Below are positions 46,225 through 51,543 of a DNA stretch of 64,000 nt, piece by piece. This DNA is from a bacterium 1xD42-67. GTDB taxonomy: Bacteria; Bacillota; Clostridia; Oscillospirales; Oscillospiraceae. The notes below the pieces were generated by a model. That model searched no databases. It saw nothing but the letters and a program-made list of their open reading frames with translations, and had not been told where the DNA came from. The translations under genes were made by a program, and so were the position numbers. The stretch lies in the NCBI GenBank assembly GCA_003612335.1, contig RAYO01000004.1, positions 124,001-188,000 on the forward strand, in the 5' to 3' direction. Within the stretch, counting starts at the first letter, position 1. Every line of letters begins with the position of its first letter.

Positions 46225-46259
46225 GATCCTCCCCGCCGCGGCGGGGAGGATCCTTTTTT
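46225..46259. terminator. Terminator between the response regulator and the ABC-F gene
   Basis: A perfect 28-base palindrome (GATCCTCCCCGC arm) followed by C and six T on the plus strand; it also lies right after the ABC-F stop on the other strand. Confidence 0.93.
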
Positions 46260-47736
46260 ACAGCCCGACCCTATGGGTGGCGATCTTCTCTCGGAAGATC
46301 TGGTCGTGCTCCACGAAGAGCAGCGTGGGCCGGTACTGGAGGAGGAGCTCCTCCAGCTGGATCCGCGAGAAGAGATCGATATAGTTCAGGGGCTCGTCCC
46401 AGACATACAGGTGGGCGCTCTGGCACAGGCTCTCAGCGATCAGCACCTTTTTCCGCTGGCCTGCACTGTAGGACCCCATATCCCGCTCGAAGAGGTCCCG
46501 AGAAACGTCCAGCTTGCGCAGGACCGTGAGGAATCGGGTCAGATCCACCTCCCGCTCCTCCGCCCACTCCAACAGGGGCCCCCGCAGGTGGTCCGCCTTC
46601 TGGGGCACATAGGAGATCTTCAGCCCGGAGGCCCGGAAGAGCTCCCCGGTGTGGGGCACCTCCTCCCCCAGCGCCAGACGCAGCAGGCTGGTCTTGCCCG
46701 AGCCGTTCCCCCCCTCCAGACACAGCCGGTCCCCCTGACATAGTGTAAAGGATATCTCCTTGTCATCTATCCCCGGATAGGATATCGTCAGGCCCCGCCC
46801 CTCCAGCAGCCGACCGCTGTGATAGACCAGAGGGGCCAGCTTCAGGCTGTCCGCCCGCTCGATATCCTTCAGCAGGCCGGCTTTCTCCTGGACCACCTTC
46901 TGCTGGCGGCTCTCCAGGTTCTTGGCCCGCTGCATCATCTTGGCCGACTTATGGCCGATGAAGCCCCGGTCGGGACGCAGGCCAGAATTCTTCGAGGCAT
47001 ATTTGGTCTTCTCCACCTTGTCCGACCAGTCCGAGGTCCGCTTCGCCGCCTGCTCCAGGCGCCGGATCTCCCCCTTCAGCTTCTCATTCCGGGCCAGCTC
47101 TCCCCTGTCCCGGTCCTCCTTGTCCCGCAGCCAGCTGGAGAAGGTCCCCCGTACCAGCTCCGGACCTGTATGGTTCAGGGCCAGGATGTGGTCCACACAG
47201 CCGTCCAGCACCGCCCGGTCGTGGGACACCAGGAGGAAGCCCCGGTCCAGTTCCCGGAGATACCGGGCCACCAGGGCCCGCCCCTCCCCGTCCAGGTGGT
47301 CGGTGGGCTCGTCGATCATGGGCCAGGCCCCTTCGTCCAAAAAGAGGGCGGCCAGCAGGGCCCGGGTCTGCTCCCCGCCGCTGAGGGTATCGAAGGGCCG
47401 GGCCAGCACCTCTTCTCCCAGGCCCAGCTTGGACAGCTCCCAGGTCAGCCGCCACTCCTCCGACTGCGGGACCCCCTCCAGCAGGATGTCCATCGTCCGC
47501 TGGGAGGGGTCCTCCACCGGCTTGGGCCAGCGCAGGCAGGACTGGCCCACAGAGACGGTCCCCCGTCCCTCCAGCTCCCCCGCCAGCAGGCGGAGGAGGG
47601 TAGTCTTCCCCCGGCCGTTCCGGCCCACCAGGCCCAGCTTCCAGCTGGTGTCCAGCTGGAGGTCCAGGCCCTCGAAGACGGGGGCGTGGTCCCCGTCATA
47701 GGTGAAATAAAGGTCTTGTATCGTGATCTTAGACAT
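46258..47736 (-). CDS. Lsa-type ABC-F ribosomal protection protein
   Basis: 492-residue tandem ATPase without membrane spans. ABC-F proteins of the Lsa/Vga group bind the ribosomal E site and displace lincosamide, streptogramin A and pleuromutilin antibiotics. ATP sites: Walker A GRNGRGKTT (about 33-41) and GNGSGKTS; signatures LSGGEQTR and YSAGQRKK; Walker B segments PMIDEPTDHLDG and YVWDEPLNYIDL. The linker RGFIGHKSAKMMQRAKNLESR is typical of Lsa. Start at ATG 47736, with GGAGGGAAAGAT in front; the extended ORF upstream is the leader. Drug specificity cannot be read from the sequence. Expression is likely drug-inducible through the leader. Confidence 0.9.
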   Translation of the reverse strand: MSKITIQDLYFTYDGDHAPVFEGLDLQLDTSWKLGLVGRNGRGKTTLLRLLAGELEGRGTVSVGQSCLRWPKPVEDPSQRTMDILLEGVPQSEEWRLTWELSKLGLGEEVLARPFDTLSGGEQTRALLAALFLDEGAWPMIDEPTDHLDGEGRALVARYLRELDRGFLLVSHDRAVLDGCVDHILALNHTGPELVRGTFSSWLRDKEDRDRGELARNEKLKGEIRRLEQAAKRTSDWSDKVEKTKYASKNSGLRPDRGFIGHKSAKMMQRAKNLESRQQKVVQEKAGLLKDIERADSLKLAPLVYHSGRLLEGRGLTISYPGIDDKEISFTLCQGDRLCLEGGNGSGKTSLLRLALGEEVPHTGELFRASGLKISYVPQKADHLRGPLLEWAEEREVDLTRFLTVLRKLDVSRDLFERDMGSYSAGQRKKVLIAESLCQSAHLYVWDEPLNYIDLFSRIQLEELLLQYRPTLLFVEHDQIFREKIATHRVGL

Positions 47737-47839
47737 ATCTTTCCCTCCTGTCATGCGCGAAAAAGCCGCAAGAGGGACCTCCCTCTCGCGGCGGCAGGGG
47801 CGATATGCCCATATGAGCCGAAAGGGGAAGCATGCGCAT
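47729..47839 (-). CDS. Leader ORF 2 of the ABC-F gene (36 codons or 34 from the second ATG)
   Basis: An AGGAGG site (minus strand, plus coordinates 47841-47848) precedes ATGCGCATG; initiation is at 47839 or more likely 47833. The frame runs straight through the intrinsic terminator and the ABC-F ribosome site, and stops with TAA overlapping the ABC-F start as ATGTCTAA. It encodes MRMLPLSAHMGISPLPPREG and then 16 more residues rich in Arg. Translation would open the terminator and feed ribosomes to the ABC-F start. No known protein similarity. Confidence 0.6.
   Translation of the reverse strand: MRMLPLSAHMGISPLPPREGGPSCGFFAHDRRERYV
47760..47792 (-). terminator. Leader terminator of the ABC-F gene
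   Basis: On the minus strand GCCGCGAGAGGGA pairs with TCCCTCTTGCGGC around GG, followed by five T. It lies between the promoter and the ABC-F gene, as in known drug-inducible ABC-F leaders. Confidence 0.85.
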
Positions 47840-47856
47840 CTCCTCCTGCGGACCCA

Positions 47857-47902
47857 TGACAAGACCAGGCCGCCTCCGCGGCCCTCAGCGTTCCTCTTGT
47901 CA
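47857..47902 (-). promoter_or_regulatory. Upstream hairpin of the ABC-F leader
   Basis: TGACAAGA pairs with TCTTGTCA, enclosing GGCCGC-GGAG-GCGGCC (minus strand). It lies between leader ORF 1 and leader ORF 2 and is a candidate anti-antiterminator or pausing element. Confidence 0.6.
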
Positions 47903-47907
47903 CAGGA

Positions 47908-47928
47908 TCAGCAAGTGGTCTTGCGCAT
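47908..47928 (-). CDS. Leader ORF 1, six-residue peptide MRKTTC
   Basis: A six-codon ORF ending TGA with a good ribosome site (GGGAGGCGGG, 47932-47941) lies about 26 bases after the predicted transcription start of the ABC-F gene. Too short to appear in ordinary gene calls. Its place ahead of hairpins and a terminator is that of stall-sensing peptides of antibiotic resistance leaders. Confidence 0.6.
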   Translation of the reverse strand: MRKTTC

Positions 47929-47960
47929 CTTCCCGCCTCCCATCTCTTTTCATTGGGGAC

Positions 47961-47989
47961 AATATACCACACAGCGGCAGTTCTGTCAA
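47961..47989 (-). promoter_or_regulatory. Promoter of the ABC-F transcript
   Basis: On the minus strand TTGACA (47984-47989), 17 bases, TATATT (47961-47966). Start near 47954, giving a leader of about 218 bases. Confidence 0.88.
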
Positions 47990-48177
47990 GCCTCCCGCTG
48001 CCGCAGCACCGGGGATCTTCATGAATGCAAGGTCTCGATCCTGTGATCCCCCGCCAGAGACGGGGGGACACAGGAAGATCTTCTTGGCGGACACTGCCGC
48101 AGCGCCCGTCCCACTTGCTTTTTTGTCCAAAACATGGTAGGCTGGAGAGAGAAGTTCCGGAGGGAGGCGAAGGACGC
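47990..48177. other. Remainder of the intergenic region ahead of comEC
   Basis: Contains a GC hairpin with CCTGTG/CACAGG and TCCCCC/GGGGGA segments (about 48043-48082) and a weak plus-strand promoter (TTGCTT, 17 bases, TAGGCT near 48117-48145) that may drive comEC. No gene or repeat recognised. Confidence 0.4.
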
Positions 48178-50496
48178 ATGCGCATACTGGCTGTCTTTGC
48201 CTTCTCCTTTTCTGCCGCTGTCTTCGCGGCCATCTACGGCGGTCTGGACGCCCTCCTCCTCCCGCTGGGCGGGGCGCTGGTCGTGGCAGCGGCCGCCGCC
48301 GGACTGATCCTGCGTCAAAAGAGCCGCAGGCGTGCCCAGATCCTCCTGGTCCTGTCCGGTCTGGCCTGCGGTCTTTTGTGGACCTCCCTCTATATGGCCC
48401 TCTTTTTCCGGCCCGCCCAGGCCCTGGACGGGCGCACGGTCCGGCTGTCCGCCACGGTGGCCGACTGGCCCCAGGAGAGCGATCACGGCGGGCATACTAT
48501 AGTGGTCCGGGCCAAGACCGAGTCCTGGGCAGAGGTCACCGCCATCCTCTACACCGACGGACAGGGGGCCGGGCTGCGCCCCGGGGACCGGATCGACACC
48601 GTGGCGCACTGCACCCTGGGGGATCGGACCTTCGCCGGAGAGAGAATCACCTACTACACTGCCAAAGGGGTCTTCCTCCGGGCCCAGGCATACGGCCGGC
48701 TGGAGGTGGAACGCCCCTCCTCCGTCTCTCCCCAGTATTACGCCGCCTGGGCCTCCAGGGCCCTGCGGACAGGCATCGACACCGCCTTCCCCGAAGACGT
48801 CTCCGGCTTCATCCGGGCCCTGGTGACGGGGAACCGGGACAGCCTCACCGACGAGTTCACCACCTCACTGGAGCGGACCGGCCTGTCCCACACCGTGGCA
48901 GTGTCTGGGATGCACCTGGCCTTCCTGTCCGGCCTGCTCACCTATCTGCTGGGCCGGGGCAGGCGGTCCACCGCCCTGCTCACTATCGCCTGGGTGGTCC
49001 TGTTCTGCGGGATCGCCGGGAACACTCCCTCGGTGCTCCGGGCGGCGGTGATGGTCCTCATGCTCCAGTTCGCCCCCCTGCTGGGCCGGGAGCGGGACGG
49101 CCCCACCTCCCTGGCCACGGCGCTGATGCTCCTGCTCTGGCTCAACCCCTTCTCCGCCGCCCACATCGGCTTACAGCTCTCCTTCACATCGGTGGCCGGC
49201 ATCCTGCTGATATCCGACCGGGTCCAGGACTGGCTGCTGGAGCGCCTCGGTATGGGCGAGTGGGAACGGCCCAAGCACAGAGCGGTGCGATACCTGCGGG
49301 CGGCCCCTTACTTCCTCGTCTCCACCCTGTCCGCCACCCTAGGGGCCTCGGTGCTCACGATCCCCCTGGTGGCCCTTCACTTCAACATCGTCTCGCTGAT
49401 CGCGCCGGCGGCCAATCTGCTCACCCTGTGGGCCATCGGCCTGCTCTTTTTGGGCGGACTGGGGACGGGAGCCCTGGCCGCAGTCCTGCCCGGTCTGGCT
49501 CCAGTGCTGGTCCCCCTCTTCACCTGGCTGGCCCGATACCTTCAGTGGGTGGTGGACCTGCTGTCCAGGCCCGCTCTGGCGGCTCTGCCCTTGGAGTCGG
49601 TGTATCACCGGGCCTGGCTGGTACTGGTCTACTCCCTCCTGCTGGTATCCATGCGGATGAAGGGCAGGCGCCCCCTCTGGATGCCCGTCGCCGCCGGAGG
49701 GTTGGGGCTGGTCCTGGCCGTGGCCCTGACCCGGGCGACCTTCTATCTGGGAGATATGGGCGTGACGGTGCTGGACGTGGGCCAGGGCCAGAGCGTTTTG
49801 GTTCGCTCGAGGGGATATCTCACCTTGGTAGACTGCGGCGGGGACAGCCGGGACGACCCCGGCGATGTGGCCGCCGATCACCTCCAGTCCATCGGCCGCA
49901 GCGATATCGATCTGCTGGTGGTGTCCCACTACCACGCCGACCACGCCAACGGGATCCCCCAGCTGCTGCGGCGGATCGACGTGGGAGAGATCGCCCTGCC
50001 CGATGTGGAGGGGGACAGCCCCCTCCGGGCGGAGATCCTGGCCGCCGCAGAGGCAAAGGGCATCCCGGTGCGCTTCGTCCGGAAAGAGGTCCGCTTCTGC
50101 CCCTCCCGCAAGGACCGCATCACCATATCCCCTCCCATGATGGCCGAGGGGACCGTCAACGAACTGGGGCTGACGGTGCTGGCCACCCACGGAGAGCTAG
50201 ATGTCCTGATCACTGGGGACATGGAGCGGGAGGGGGAACTGCGTCTGCTGTCCCAGGCCCCTCTGCCCCGCATCGAGGTGTTGGTAGCGGGCCACCACGG
50301 CTCCCGCACCTCCACCTCTCCGGAACTCCTGGAGGCGGTCCGCCCAGAGCTGGCCCTGTTCTCTGTGGGGCCCGACAACCGATACGGCCACCCGGCTTGG
50401 GAGACGCTGGACCGGCTGGACCGGGCGGGGGCAAAGATCTACCGCACCGACCTGTATGGGACGATCGAAGTACATCTGAAAGAGAATCTGTCATAA
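48178..50496 (+). CDS. comEC: DNA-uptake channel protein ComEC/Rec2
   Basis: 772-residue polytopic membrane protein that passes single-stranded DNA during transformation. N-terminal DUF4131 part (about 1-190) with the OB-like segment, the ComEC competence domain (FIRALVTGNRDSLTDEF, LSHTVAVSGMHLAFLSGLLTYLLGR, GNTPSVLRAAVMV, NPFSAAHIGLQLSFTSVAGIL) and a C-terminal metallo-beta-lactamase domain with LDVGQGQSVLV and SHYHADHANG. The start was taken at ATG 48178, with GGAGGGAGGCGAAGG upstream. All parts look intact. It is followed after 12 bases by holA, a common pairing in Firmicutes. Confidence 0.95.
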   Translation: MRILAVFAFSFSAAVFAAIYGGLDALLLPLGGALVVAAAAAGLILRQKSRRRAQILLVLSGLACGLLWTSLYMALFFRPAQALDGRTVRLSATVADWPQESDHGGHTIVVRAKTESWAEVTAILYTDGQGAGLRPGDRIDTVAHCTLGDRTFAGERITYYTAKGVFLRAQAYGRLEVERPSSVSPQYYAAWASRALRTGIDTAFPEDVSGFIRALVTGNRDSLTDEFTTSLERTGLSHTVAVSGMHLAFLSGLLTYLLGRGRRSTALLTIAWVVLFCGIAGNTPSVLRAAVMVLMLQFAPLLGRERDGPTSLATALMLLLWLNPFSAAHIGLQLSFTSVAGILLISDRVQDWLLERLGMGEWERPKHRAVRYLRAAPYFLVSTLSATLGASVLTIPLVALHFNIVSLIAPAANLLTLWAIGLLFLGGLGTGALAAVLPGLAPVLVPLFTWLARYLQWVVDLLSRPALAALPLESVYHRAWLVLVYSLLLVSMRMKGRRPLWMPVAAGGLGLVLAVALTRATFYLGDMGVTVLDVGQGQSVLVRSRGYLTLVDCGGDSRDDPGDVAADHLQSIGRSDIDLLVVSHYHADHANGIPQLLRRIDVGEIALPDVEGDSPLRAEILAAAEAKGIPVRFVRKEVRFCPSRKDRITISPPMMAEGTVNELGLTVLATHGELDVLITGDMEREGELRLLSQAPLPRIEVLVAGHHGSRTSTSPELLEAVRPELALFSVGPDNRYGHPAWETLDRLDRAGAKIYRTDLYGTIEVHLKENLS

Positions 50497-50508
50497 GGAG
50501 GGACCCCC

Positions 50509-51543
50509 ATGCCGCCGAGATCCAGACCGGACACATCCGGATTCGATCAGCTGAAAAAGGACCTGTCCTCCGGGACGCCGGGCCAGCTCTATATCCTCCA
50601 CGGGGAAGAGACCTTCCTCCGAGACCACTACCTGCGCCGCCTCCAGGAGGCGGTGCTCACTGGGGGGCTGGGGGAGTTCAACCGCCACGACCTGGGGGCC
50701 GGGGACATGTCCCCCCACGCTCTGGAGGAGGCGGTGGACTGTCTGCCCATGATGGCGGAGCGGACCCTGGTCCAGGTCACCGACTTCGACCTGTTCAAGG
50801 CGGGAGAAAAGGATCGGGATGCCTACCTGCAGATCTTGTCCGGCCTGCCCAGCTACTGCTGTCTGGTCTTCCTCTACGACCTGATCGCCTACAAGCCGGA
50901 CGCCCGTACCAAGCTGGCCCAGGCCGTGAAGCAGCATGGCACGGTGGTGGAGTTCGCCCGGCAGGGCCAGCGGGAGCTCACCGACTGGGTCCGCCGCCAC
51001 TTCAAGGCCCTGGGCAAGGAGATCGATCCCCGCCTGTGTGAGGAGCTCATCTTCCTGTGCGGCGACCTGATGCACAACCTCCAGCAGGAGATCGGCAAGA
51101 TCGGGGCCTATGCCAAGGGGGAGCGCATCACCCGGGCGGATATCGAGGCAGTGGCCACTCCTCAGCTCAGCGCCGTGGTCTTCCGGATCGCCGACGCCAT
51201 CGGAGAAAAGGACTACGACCGGGCGGCCCGGGTCCTGGGAGAGCTGTATCAGATGCAAAAGAGCCCCTATGAGATCCTGGCAGCCCTGGGCAAGCAGATG
51301 CGTCAGCTCTACTCCGCCCGGCTGGCCCTGGACCAGAAGAAGAACGCCGCCTATGTCGCCAAGCTGTGGGGGATGCGATACCCCGCCGACCGCCTGATGG
51401 TCAGTGCCCGGCGATTCTCCCTGCCCTGGTGCCGCCGGGCCGTCGTCCGTTGCGCCCAGACCGACCTGGCGATGAAGACCACTGGTCAGGAGCCCAAGGA
51501 GCTGCTGACCACCCTGCTGCTGGAGCTAGCTGACGCGGGGTGA
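50509..51543 (+). CDS. holA: DNA polymerase III delta subunit HolA
   Basis: Clamp-loader subunit that opens the sliding clamp. The 344 residues show the delta signature YILHGEETFLRDHYLRRL (25-42), a Rossmann-like AAA domain, ALEEAVDCLPMMAERTLVQV and the C-terminal helical EKDYDRAARVLGELYQMQKSPYEILAALGKQMRQLY. AAGGAGGGAC precedes the ATG. Its last 18 bases overlap the 3' end of the opposing Spo0A-C-like gene. Confidence 0.95.
   Translation: MPPRSRPDTSGFDQLKKDLSSGTPGQLYILHGEETFLRDHYLRRLQEAVLTGGLGEFNRHDLGAGDMSPHALEEAVDCLPMMAERTLVQVTDFDLFKAGEKDRDAYLQILSGLPSYCCLVFLYDLIAYKPDARTKLAQAVKQHGTVVEFARQGQRELTDWVRRHFKALGKEIDPRLCEELIFLCGDLMHNLQQEIGKIGAYAKGERITRADIEAVATPQLSAVVFRIADAIGEKDYDRAARVLGELYQMQKSPYEILAALGKQMRQLYSARLALDQKKNAAYVAKLWGMRYPADRLMVSARRFSLPWCRRAVVRCAQTDLAMKTTGQEPKELLTTLLLELADAG

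What the first reader, a model, noticed from the sequence alone, without database searches (positions are those of the whole stretch)
47729..47989. Two-ORF attenuator leader of the Lsa-type ABC-F gene
A consensus promoter, a six-codon ORF (MRKTTC) with its own ribosome site, a long hairpin, a second ORF of 34-36 codons with AGGAGG, and an intrinsic terminator lie within 218 bases. ORF 2 reads through the terminator stem and the ABC-F ribosome site and stops on ATGTCTAA, sharing eight bases with the ABC-F start. Ribosomes translating ORF 2 would block terminator folding and hand over to the resistance gene, while ORF 1 stalling could control ORF 2 access; both ORFs start with a TGCGCA that can pair with the other. 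Leader attenuation is known for lmo0919 and vmlR, but ORF 2 coupled to the gene start differs from what I know.
Basis: partly seen in the sequence, partly recalled or inferred. Interest (0 to 1): 0.74.

Follow-up and report, generated by a model that had tools for sequence, protein, structure and literature searches.

The report
RNA switch before a ribosome-protection gene
A six-codon mini-gene and a set of competing RNA hairpins most likely keep an antibiotic-protection gene off until a drug parks a ribosome on the mini-gene; the second, longer mini-gene that was reported turns out to be part of the RNA switch, and the same switch recurs in many relatives.

Summary
All reported sequence features are present and form an attenuator leader of a Lsa-type ABC-F gene, but ORF 2 is not supported as a gene: of 37 distinct same-genus leaders, 6 keep an ATG there and only the window has an ATG ORF whose stop overlaps the ABC-F start. 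Its "AGGAGG" is an antiterminator strand, A, that pairs either with a word U in ORF 1 or with the terminator's 3' arm, T3. Over 149 leaders the three strands match far above shuffled controls and vary together. Best model: a drug parks a ribosome on the ORF 1 start codon, covers U, and frees A and its neighbour strand to capture the terminator arms, so transcription reads through: the vmlR/cplR logic (PMC9226507, PMC10201436). The seeming leader-peptide conservation (MRKTTC, MxxxSC) looks like the shadow of U: codons are constrained beyond the amino acid, and U often persists where the ORF stops before it, including start-stop ORFs. Weak points: at equilibrium the window's terminator still beats the antiterminator by about 3 kcal/mol, and nothing has been tested in cells.

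The parts
47961..47989 (-). Promoter: TTGACA (47989-47984), 17-nt spacer, TATATT (47966-47961), TG before the -10
   Evidence: 11 of 12 matches; a TTGAC..TAnnnT match in 35 of 37 same-genus leaders
47932..47941 (-). Ribosome site of ORF 1 (GGGAGGCGGG); pairs with strand S in the off state
   Evidence: sequence, helix columns 19-21 with 132-134
47908..47928 (-). ORF 1 (uORF), MRKTTC, stop included
   Evidence: conserved in same-genus leaders
47911..47918 (-). Word U (CCACTTGC, +11 to +18 of ORF 1); pairs with A in the off state
47896..47903 (-). Strand V (GTGACAAG), pairs with W in the off state
47855..47863 (-). Strand W (CTTGTCATG), pairs with V (off) or X (on)
47842..47851 (-).
47817..47838 (-). 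Strand S (TGCGC..CTTCCCCTTTCGGC); pairs with ORF 1 start and ribosome site (off) or with the terminator 5' arm (on, predicted)
47729..47839 (-).
47760..47792 (-). Intrinsic terminator: 5' arm T5 47792-47781, 3' arm T3 47776-47765, T tract 47764-47760
   Evidence: consensus pairs 186-197 with 204-215
47748..47755 (-). Strand X (CATGACAG), pairs with W in read-through RNA; abuts the ABC-F ribosome site
   Evidence: helix 97-104 with 227-234
47743..47749 (-). ABC-F ribosome site (AGGAGGG)
   Evidence: AGGAGG invariant in the 25 leaders of A1
46258..47736 (-). Lsa-type ABC-F ribosomal protection protein (492 aa)

Best explanation
A ribosome-operated transcription attenuator with one uORF. Off state: the RNA around ORF 1 (ribosome site, AUG, word U, strand V) pairs with a downstream strand (W, A, S), leaving the terminator free to form; transcription stops at about 47760. 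On state: a drug that blocks the first peptide bonds (lincosamide, pleuromutilin or streptogramin A, inferred from the gene family) parks a ribosome at the ORF 1 start. Its footprint covers U and the ribosome site, so A and S are released. S captures the terminator 5' arm as it emerges, A captures the 3' arm, and polymerase reads on into the ABC-F gene; W:X may lock this form. ORF 2 is not translated; it is the A-S strand. The ORF 1 peptide matters little; its apparent conservation mostly reflects U, which must mirror the terminator 3' arm and lie under a ribosome at the start codon. Shown by sequence and comparison: the parts, their conservation, the three-strand match. Predicted by folding: release of A and capture of T5. 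Inferred: start site of the RNA, drug, stall site, read-through.
For: ORF 1, A and terminator recur in relatives. Three-strand score >=5 in 92 of 149 leaders against 10 of 149 with U shuffled and 10 of 149 with the middle shuffled; >=6 in 58 against 1 and 4. U and T3, read independently in 115 leaders, have identical last four bases in 75 (permutation mean 45.6, 0 of 10,000 as high). Triples U-A-T3 at word position -4 (109 leaders): TAT 38, CGC 30, TGC 15, TGT 13, TAC 3, CGT 2, T3 unread 8 (A was picked by its match to U, so only the comparisons with T3 are free of that). On the ABC-F tree the 8 reconstructed T-to-C changes in U all fall where T3 has C (49 of 128 background branches). A:T3 plus W:X in 25 same-genus leaders: 96.6% of cells paired, 7 cells changed on both sides against 1.2 shuffled, 0 of 500 shuffles. 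Folding of 119 leaders (chosen by score >=4.4) with a ribosome on the AUG: U:A 0.90 to 0.06; T5 capture 0.15 to 0.49, up in 98, down in 7, window 0.02 to 0.77, above shuffled T5 (0.33) and shuffled S (0.26); stable to mask size in 30 same-genus leaders. RNA rather than peptide: Ser5 codons TCT/TCC in 72 of 72 (AGY 1475 of 4115 Ser codons in the ABC-F genes), Cys6 TGC 102 to TGT 2 (452:228 in the genes); U ends at +18 in 105 of 124; 6 start-stop ORFs keep U, scores 5.2-6.7 against shuffled means 3.6-4.4.
Against: In the window the terminator still wins at equilibrium with a ribosome at codon 1, 4 or 6; the antiterminator is 3.1 kcal/mol worse, so it needs co-transcriptional order. Over 119 leaders A:T3 exceeds 0.5 in 30 when the RNA ends at the terminator and in 4 when it runs to the gene. 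Same-branch changes of U and T3 are not above chance (1 against 0.7 expected at -4, P 0.52; 1 at -3, P 0.10). The off-state helix in the genus shows little covariation beyond shuffles. 57 of 149 leaders score under 5, and 21 of 172 gave no uORF by my rule; lsa(B) showed none in 380 nt. Codon identity can matter: in vmlR an MRK uORF was less efficient than MIN (PMC9226507, section read).
Confidence: 0.78

Rival explanations
1. One reading: ORF 2 is translated, its ribosomes keep the terminator open and hand over to the ABC-F gene by stop-start overlap; ORF 1 controls access to ORF 2.
For: The ORF, AGGAGG and ATGTCTAA overlap exist in the window; the predicted off-state hairpin hides that AGGAGG and ATG; the second ATG (34 codons) is well spaced from AGGAGG.
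Against: ATG after A in 6 of 37 same-genus leaders, any start codon in 16, an ORF of 20 or more codons ending near the ABC-F start in 6, an ATG ORF overlapping that start in 1, the window. Relatives have stops in the frame at -16, -55 and elsewhere. A drug-inhibited ribosome would also fail on ORF 2 (inference).
Confidence: 0.05
2. Nascent-peptide sensor: the peptide MRKTTC (MxxxSC) itself arrests the drug-bound ribosome at a defined codon, as in erm or msrD leaders. It could coexist in part with the RNA model as a tuning effect.
For: Among 109 long uORFs, residue 5 is S, T or A in 101 and residue 6 is Cys in 104 (the picker favoured such peptides); uORF identity affects vmlR induction; PMC10201436 raises sequence-specific stalling (passages).
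Against: 22 of 172 leaders have three-codon MR[KNI] uORFs; 10 of these 22 keep a three-strand score >=5 with U after the stop codon, 12 do not. Six Paenibacillaceae-like leaders have start-stop ORFs with U kept. Two leaders shift U by 1 nt and encode YLA. Synonymous codons are avoided.
Confidence: 0.13
3. Amino-acid attenuation: the Cys codon senses charged cysteine tRNA.
For: A Cys codon at position 6 in 104 of 172 leaders.
Against: Only one Cys codon; Arg replaces it in MRNSHR (three leaders), MRNISR, MRNNSRR, MYNTSRK and MRNSLR, the last four with matching A and T3 (the three MRNSHR leaders were not scored there and scored only 4.0-4.2). It is absent from MR* and start-stop uORFs; the gene is a ribosome-protection gene.
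Confidence: 0.02
4. Mainly translational attenuation: the parked ribosome frees the ABC-F ribosome site, and termination is secondary; may coexist. In C. difficile cplR this layer sufficed to keep expression low (PMC10201436 passages).
For: W:X pairing abuts the ABC-F ribosome site and shows two-sided changes; the unconstrained fold puts the site beside a weak stem.
Against: W:X would form in the on state and hide rather than free the site; a strong terminator with a T tract precedes the gene.
Confidence: 0.1

Closest known systems
vmlR leader of Bacillus subtilis (PMC9226507: abstract and sections 18 and 23 read)
   Same: Short uORF (MIN) inside an anti-antiterminator hairpin, antiterminator with a hairpin at its apex, intrinsic terminator, ARE-ABCF gene, uORF needed for induction.
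   Different: Three-codon uORF; NusG-dependent pausing reported there. The parts read do not describe the uORF as a copy of the terminator 3' arm. The vmlR sequence was not fetched here.
cplR leader of Clostridioides difficile and the uORF4u survey (PMC10201436: passages seen)
   Same: uORF, 5' hairpin, terminator, antiterminator; drug-induced.
   Different: uORF consensus MR[I/M]; the terminator stem hides the gene's ribosome site. The LsaA uORF is given there as MAGN, unlike the MxxxSC uORFs here.
rli53-lmo0919 and rli80-hflXr of Listeria (PMC11550727: one passage; PMC6310831: passages)
   Same: Small ORF, terminator and antiterminator upstream of a resistance gene; lincomycin-induced; an anti-antiterminator described for rli80.
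   Different: The hflXr uORF has 14 codons with an RLR motif; protein families differ.
are5sc and tiaA leaders of Streptomyces coelicolor (PMC12421871: passages seen)
   Same: uORF attenuators of ABCF genes; [quoted passage not shown]
   Different: Different uORFs (MLV; MVGDDDISG) and phylum.
lsa(E) leader, plasmid pE15 (L212)
   Same: uORF MYNFSC with U ending at +18, A GCAAGAAAG and T3 CTTTCTTGC.
   Different: The uORF lies 363 nt upstream, with extra sequence between terminator and gene.

Membership tests
uORF-controlled transcription attenuators of ARE-ABCF genes (vmlR/cplR kind) | Short uORF with ribosome site near the 5' end of a long leader | tested here: met
uORF-controlled transcription attenuators of ARE-ABCF genes (vmlR/cplR kind) | Intrinsic terminator between uORF and gene | tested here: met
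uORF-controlled transcription attenuators of ARE-ABCF genes (vmlR/cplR kind) | Anti-antiterminator hairpin containing the uORF | tested here: met
   predicted fold; 97.6% of cells paired in 25 leaders, with little covariation beyond shuffles
uORF-controlled transcription attenuators of ARE-ABCF genes (vmlR/cplR kind) | Alternative antiterminator that forms when a ribosome sits on the uORF | tested here: inconclusive
   T5 captured in the window (0.02 to 0.77), but the terminator wins at equilibrium by 3.1 kcal/mol
uORF-controlled transcription attenuators of ARE-ABCF genes (vmlR/cplR kind) | Drug-dependent read-through that needs uORF translation | not testable with these tools
   needs RNA and reporter data
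Lsa family ABC-F ribosomal protection protein | NCBIfam ABCF_Lsa_all (NF000167) at its curated cut-off of 750 bits | tested here: not met
   621 bits, the best-scoring family, full length; hence 'Lsa-type', not Lsa proper
Ribosomal protection-like ABC-F protein | NCBIfam ribo_prot_ABC_F (NF000355), cut-off 380 bits | tested here: met
   410.6 bits; Lsa(A) 7nhk is the best solved relative, E 4e-120
   1 of 37 leaders, the window itself
Known Rfam leader families | Match at gathering score | tested here: not met
   none in the window; in seven relatives only one match at E<=1, a microRNA family far below its cut-off

The most novel reading that the evidence does not exclude
In Lsa-type attenuators the sensor is not a leader peptide but a ribosome parked on a start codon. 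The word U beneath it is a copy of the terminator's 3' arm, so uORF and terminator compete as twins for one antiterminator strand. The 'conserved peptide' MxxxSC is a by-product, and in some lineages the uORF has shrunk to a start codon followed at once by a stop, a drug sensor that makes no peptide bond.
Probability: 0.55. Interest if true: 0.68.

Novelty: new member of a known kind. Interest (0 to 1): 0.48.

Why it matters
PMC10201436 asks whether conserved uORF sequences of ARE-ABCF genes reveal drug- and sequence-specific stalling (passage). For the Lsa-type leaders examined here the conservation is explained largely by RNA pairing, so a uORF consensus alone should not be read as a peptide arrest code. 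Natural start-stop uORFs make this directly testable. The same leader design is seen upstream of genes in Oscillospiraceae and other Bacillota and of the mobile gene lsa(E).

Tried and rejected
ORF 2 as a gene: rejected. Peptide arrest and cysteine attenuation: see rivals. Simple equilibrium switching in the window: not seen; a forced antiterminator costs 3.1 kcal/mol. L075 switches with the ribosome at codon 1 or 4 but not at codon 6; L139 at all three. Same-branch concerted change of U and T3: not above chance. Off-state covariation in the genus: not above shuffles for most measures. Terminator-uORF mimicry by local alignment: mean score 15.4 own, 11.4 shuffled, 13.9 with another locus's terminator, own above shuffled in 94 of 119; so locus-specific mimicry is weak, and the window itself aligns only over GGGAGG. 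Rfam: nothing useful. Among four plasmid relatives, lsa(E) has the leader; lsa(B) showed no such uORF by my scan; the Paenibacillus one has a start-stop or MDRM uORF; the Limosilactobacillus one a TTG three-codon candidate. CplR-family leaders: 27 of 398 genomes, none over the cut-off; my script took 25 loci, failed to place the gene start in 13, and of the other 12 showed three-codon uORFs in 4 (MRN twice, MKN, MKL), with no U word obvious by eye; not pursued. One search was a useless fetch of 51 bases.

Caveats: the uORF picker gave bonus points for M[RKFIL] starts and [ST]C ends, so peptide class counts lean that way; leaders are related, so counts and permutation results are not independent. 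Dropped before counts: 15 of 194 leaders as duplicates; of 179, those without uORF, with it closer than 150 nt or with under 200 nt upstream, leaving 152, and 3 without a terminator, leaving 149; of 149, 27 without a U word and 13 with a weak A, leaving 109; 30 of 149 by score or position, leaving 119 for folding; 12 of the 37 same-genus leaders, the more distant ones, left out of alignment A1; 3 of 30 phylum loci that could not be oriented. Lower-ranked family hits were not all fetched.
Full report
What is there. On the minus strand, between a promoter at 47989-47961 and an ABC-F gene starting at 47736, lies a leader of about 218 nt (start of the RNA inferred from the promoter). The protein is best matched by the Lsa family of ribosome-protection ABC-F proteins over its full length (621 bits, below the curated cut-off of 750) and passes the general ribosomal-protection ABC-F model (410.6 against 380); the closest solved structure is Lsa(A). 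Close named relatives are labelled Lawsonibacter, Colidextribacter, Oscillospiraceae or just Firmicutes/Bacillota.

Relatives. The gene occurs in 40 of 64 same-genus genomes, the window's own included, at E <= 1e-80, in 108 of 400 genomes drawn from the family at E <= 1e-100, and in 85 of 98 candidate stretches of named contigs, the best 80 kept. I collected 194 upstream regions, 179 of them distinct; not every hit was fetched.

ORF 2 fails. Of 37 distinct same-genus leaders, an ATG lies within 16 nt after the AGGAGG-like segment in 6, any start codon in 16, an ORF of at least 20 codons ending near the ABC-F start in 6, and an ATG ORF whose stop overlaps the ABC-F start in 1, the window. Several close relatives have stops in the frame. 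What is conserved at that place is RNA: the strand that pairs with ORF 1.

Three strands. Word U sits in ORF 1 (CCACTTGC, +11 to +18), A downstream (CCGCAGGAGG) and T3 in the terminator (CCTCTTGCGG). U and T3 are alike, and A can pair with either. Across 149 leaders this three-way match scores at least 5 in 92, against 10 when U is shuffled and 10 when the middle is shuffled; at least 6 in 58, against 1 and 4. In 115 leaders where U and T3 could be read independently, the last four bases are identical in 75, permutation mean 45.6, none of 10,000 as high. At position -4 of the word (109 leaders) the triples are TAT 38, CGC 30, TGC 15, TGT 13, TAC 3, CGT 2, with T3 unread in 8; at position -3 they are TAT 73, TGT 10, CGC 6, TGC 5, TCT 4, TAC 3, with T3 unread in 8. 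All 6 leaders in that table with C at -3 of U (Cys to Arg in four, a shifted frame in two) have GCG in A and CGC in T3. Because leaders share ancestry I placed the states on an ABC-F tree of 80 genes. Same-branch changes are no more common than chance, but the 8 reconstructed T-to-C changes of U all fall where T3 is C, against 49 of 128 background branches. That fits stepwise change through G-U pairs.

Second contact. W (CTTGTCATG) pairs with V just after ORF 1 or with X just before the ABC-F ribosome site. In 25 of the 37 same-genus leaders A:T3 plus W:X is paired in 96.6% of cells, with 7 two-sided changes against 1.2 in shuffles. The off-state helix is paired in 97.6% but shows little covariation beyond shuffles, since most variation is one-sided, largely to G-U.

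Folding. In 119 leaders chosen by three-strand score and position, without a ribosome U:A pairs with mean probability 0.90 and the terminator forms (0.85). With positions -14 to +15 of the uORF blocked, U:A falls to 0.06 and A:T3 rises from 0.00 to 0.26, above 0.5 in 30. Two leaders from other groups, L075 and L139, switch almost fully with a ribosome at codon 1 (L075 not at codon 6); there the strand that hides the uORF ribosome site pairs with the terminator 5' arm, so the antiterminator can begin before the 3' arm is made. Ending the RNA at the 5' arm shows this more generally: capture rises from 0.15 to 0.49 (up in 98 of 119, down in 7), and in the window from 0.02 to 0.77, more than with a shuffled 5' arm (0.33) or a shuffled strand S (0.26). 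In 30 same-genus leaders it does not depend on the exact footprint. Against the model, once the window's 3' arm is complete the terminator wins at equilibrium; the forced antiterminator is 3.1 kcal/mol worse.

RNA rather than peptide. Of 172 leaders with at least 300 nt upstream, 104 have a six- or seven-codon uORF with Cys at codon 6 and 22 have MR plus one residue; 21 have none by my rule (the picker favoured some peptides, see caveats). Ser at codon 5 is TCT or TCC in 72 of 72 although AGC and AGT make up 1475 of 4115 Ser codons in these genes; Cys is TGC in 102 and TGT in 2, against 452 and 228 in the genes. The word ends at +18 in 105 of 124, where a ribosome on the AUG would cover most of it (toeprint 16 nt after the A of the AUG in vmlR, PMC9226507). 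Among the 22 three-codon uORFs, 10 keep a three-strand score of at least 5 with U beyond the stop, 12 do not. Two leaders have U shifted by one base and so encode YLA. Six Paenibacillaceae-like leaders (L099, L109, L135, L214, L216, L219) have a start codon followed directly by a stop (ATGTAG, ATGTGA or GTGTAG) and still carry U, A and T3, with scores 5.2-6.7 against shuffled means 3.6-4.4. For L219 the score of 5.2 lies under its highest shuffle (5.7); in L214 a four-codon ORF, MDRM, with the same stop is an alternative. The family name is inferred from the named members. So a peptide is probably not needed in these, though codon identity may tune the response (vmlR MRK variant).

Known context. 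uORF-controlled attenuation of ARE-ABCF genes is reported for vmlR, cplR, vgaL/lmo0919, msrD, vgaA, lmrC, are5sc and tiaA (PMC9226507 abstract and sections, PMC10201436 and PMC12421871 passages). Stalling at the uORF start codon by lincosamides and pleuromutilins was shown for are5sc and tiaA. The LsaA uORF is given as MAGN. I found no paper with the strings MRKTTC, MRNFSC, MKSASC, MRNTSC, MYNFSC or MFNLSC (full texts of the held library only), and a search for start-stop with uORF and ABCF listed none on the point (listing only). Most subscription papers and all supplements were out of reach.

Verdict. What is worth keeping is that the conserved uORF is shaped by a three-strand RNA match and by distance from the start codon.

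Noticed in passing
L099, L109, L135, L214, L216 (ATG) and L219 (GTG): Start-stop uORFs (start codon directly followed by TAG or TGA) with U, A and T3 kept, upstream of Lsa-type ABC-F genes of the Paenibacillus group; in L214 a MDRM ORF is an alternative.
   Followed up: partly
L223, L224, L226 upstream of the ABC-F start: Leaders in which I saw no U/A/T3 and which share another conserved stretch (ending ACTTTTATATTTCACATAAAAAGGATGAT); perhaps a different leader type.
   Followed up: no
L212 (lsa(E), plasmid pE15) and L229: A MYNFSC uORF leader on the mobile lsa(E) gene and a relative, with the uORF about 360 nt upstream; in L212 extra sequence lies between terminator and gene.
   Followed up: partly
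46225-46252: Hairpin between the convergent ABC-F and response regulator-GGDEF genes with a T tract on the plus strand; it may end both transcripts.
   Followed up: no
48025-51543, plus strand: Divergent neighbours: a competence protein with a metallo-beta-lactamase domain (ComEC-like, name recalled) and the DNA polymerase III delta subunit.
   Followed up: no
L192, L194: uORFs MNFYLA and MTSYLA in which the RNA word is kept but shifted by one base.
   Followed up: partly
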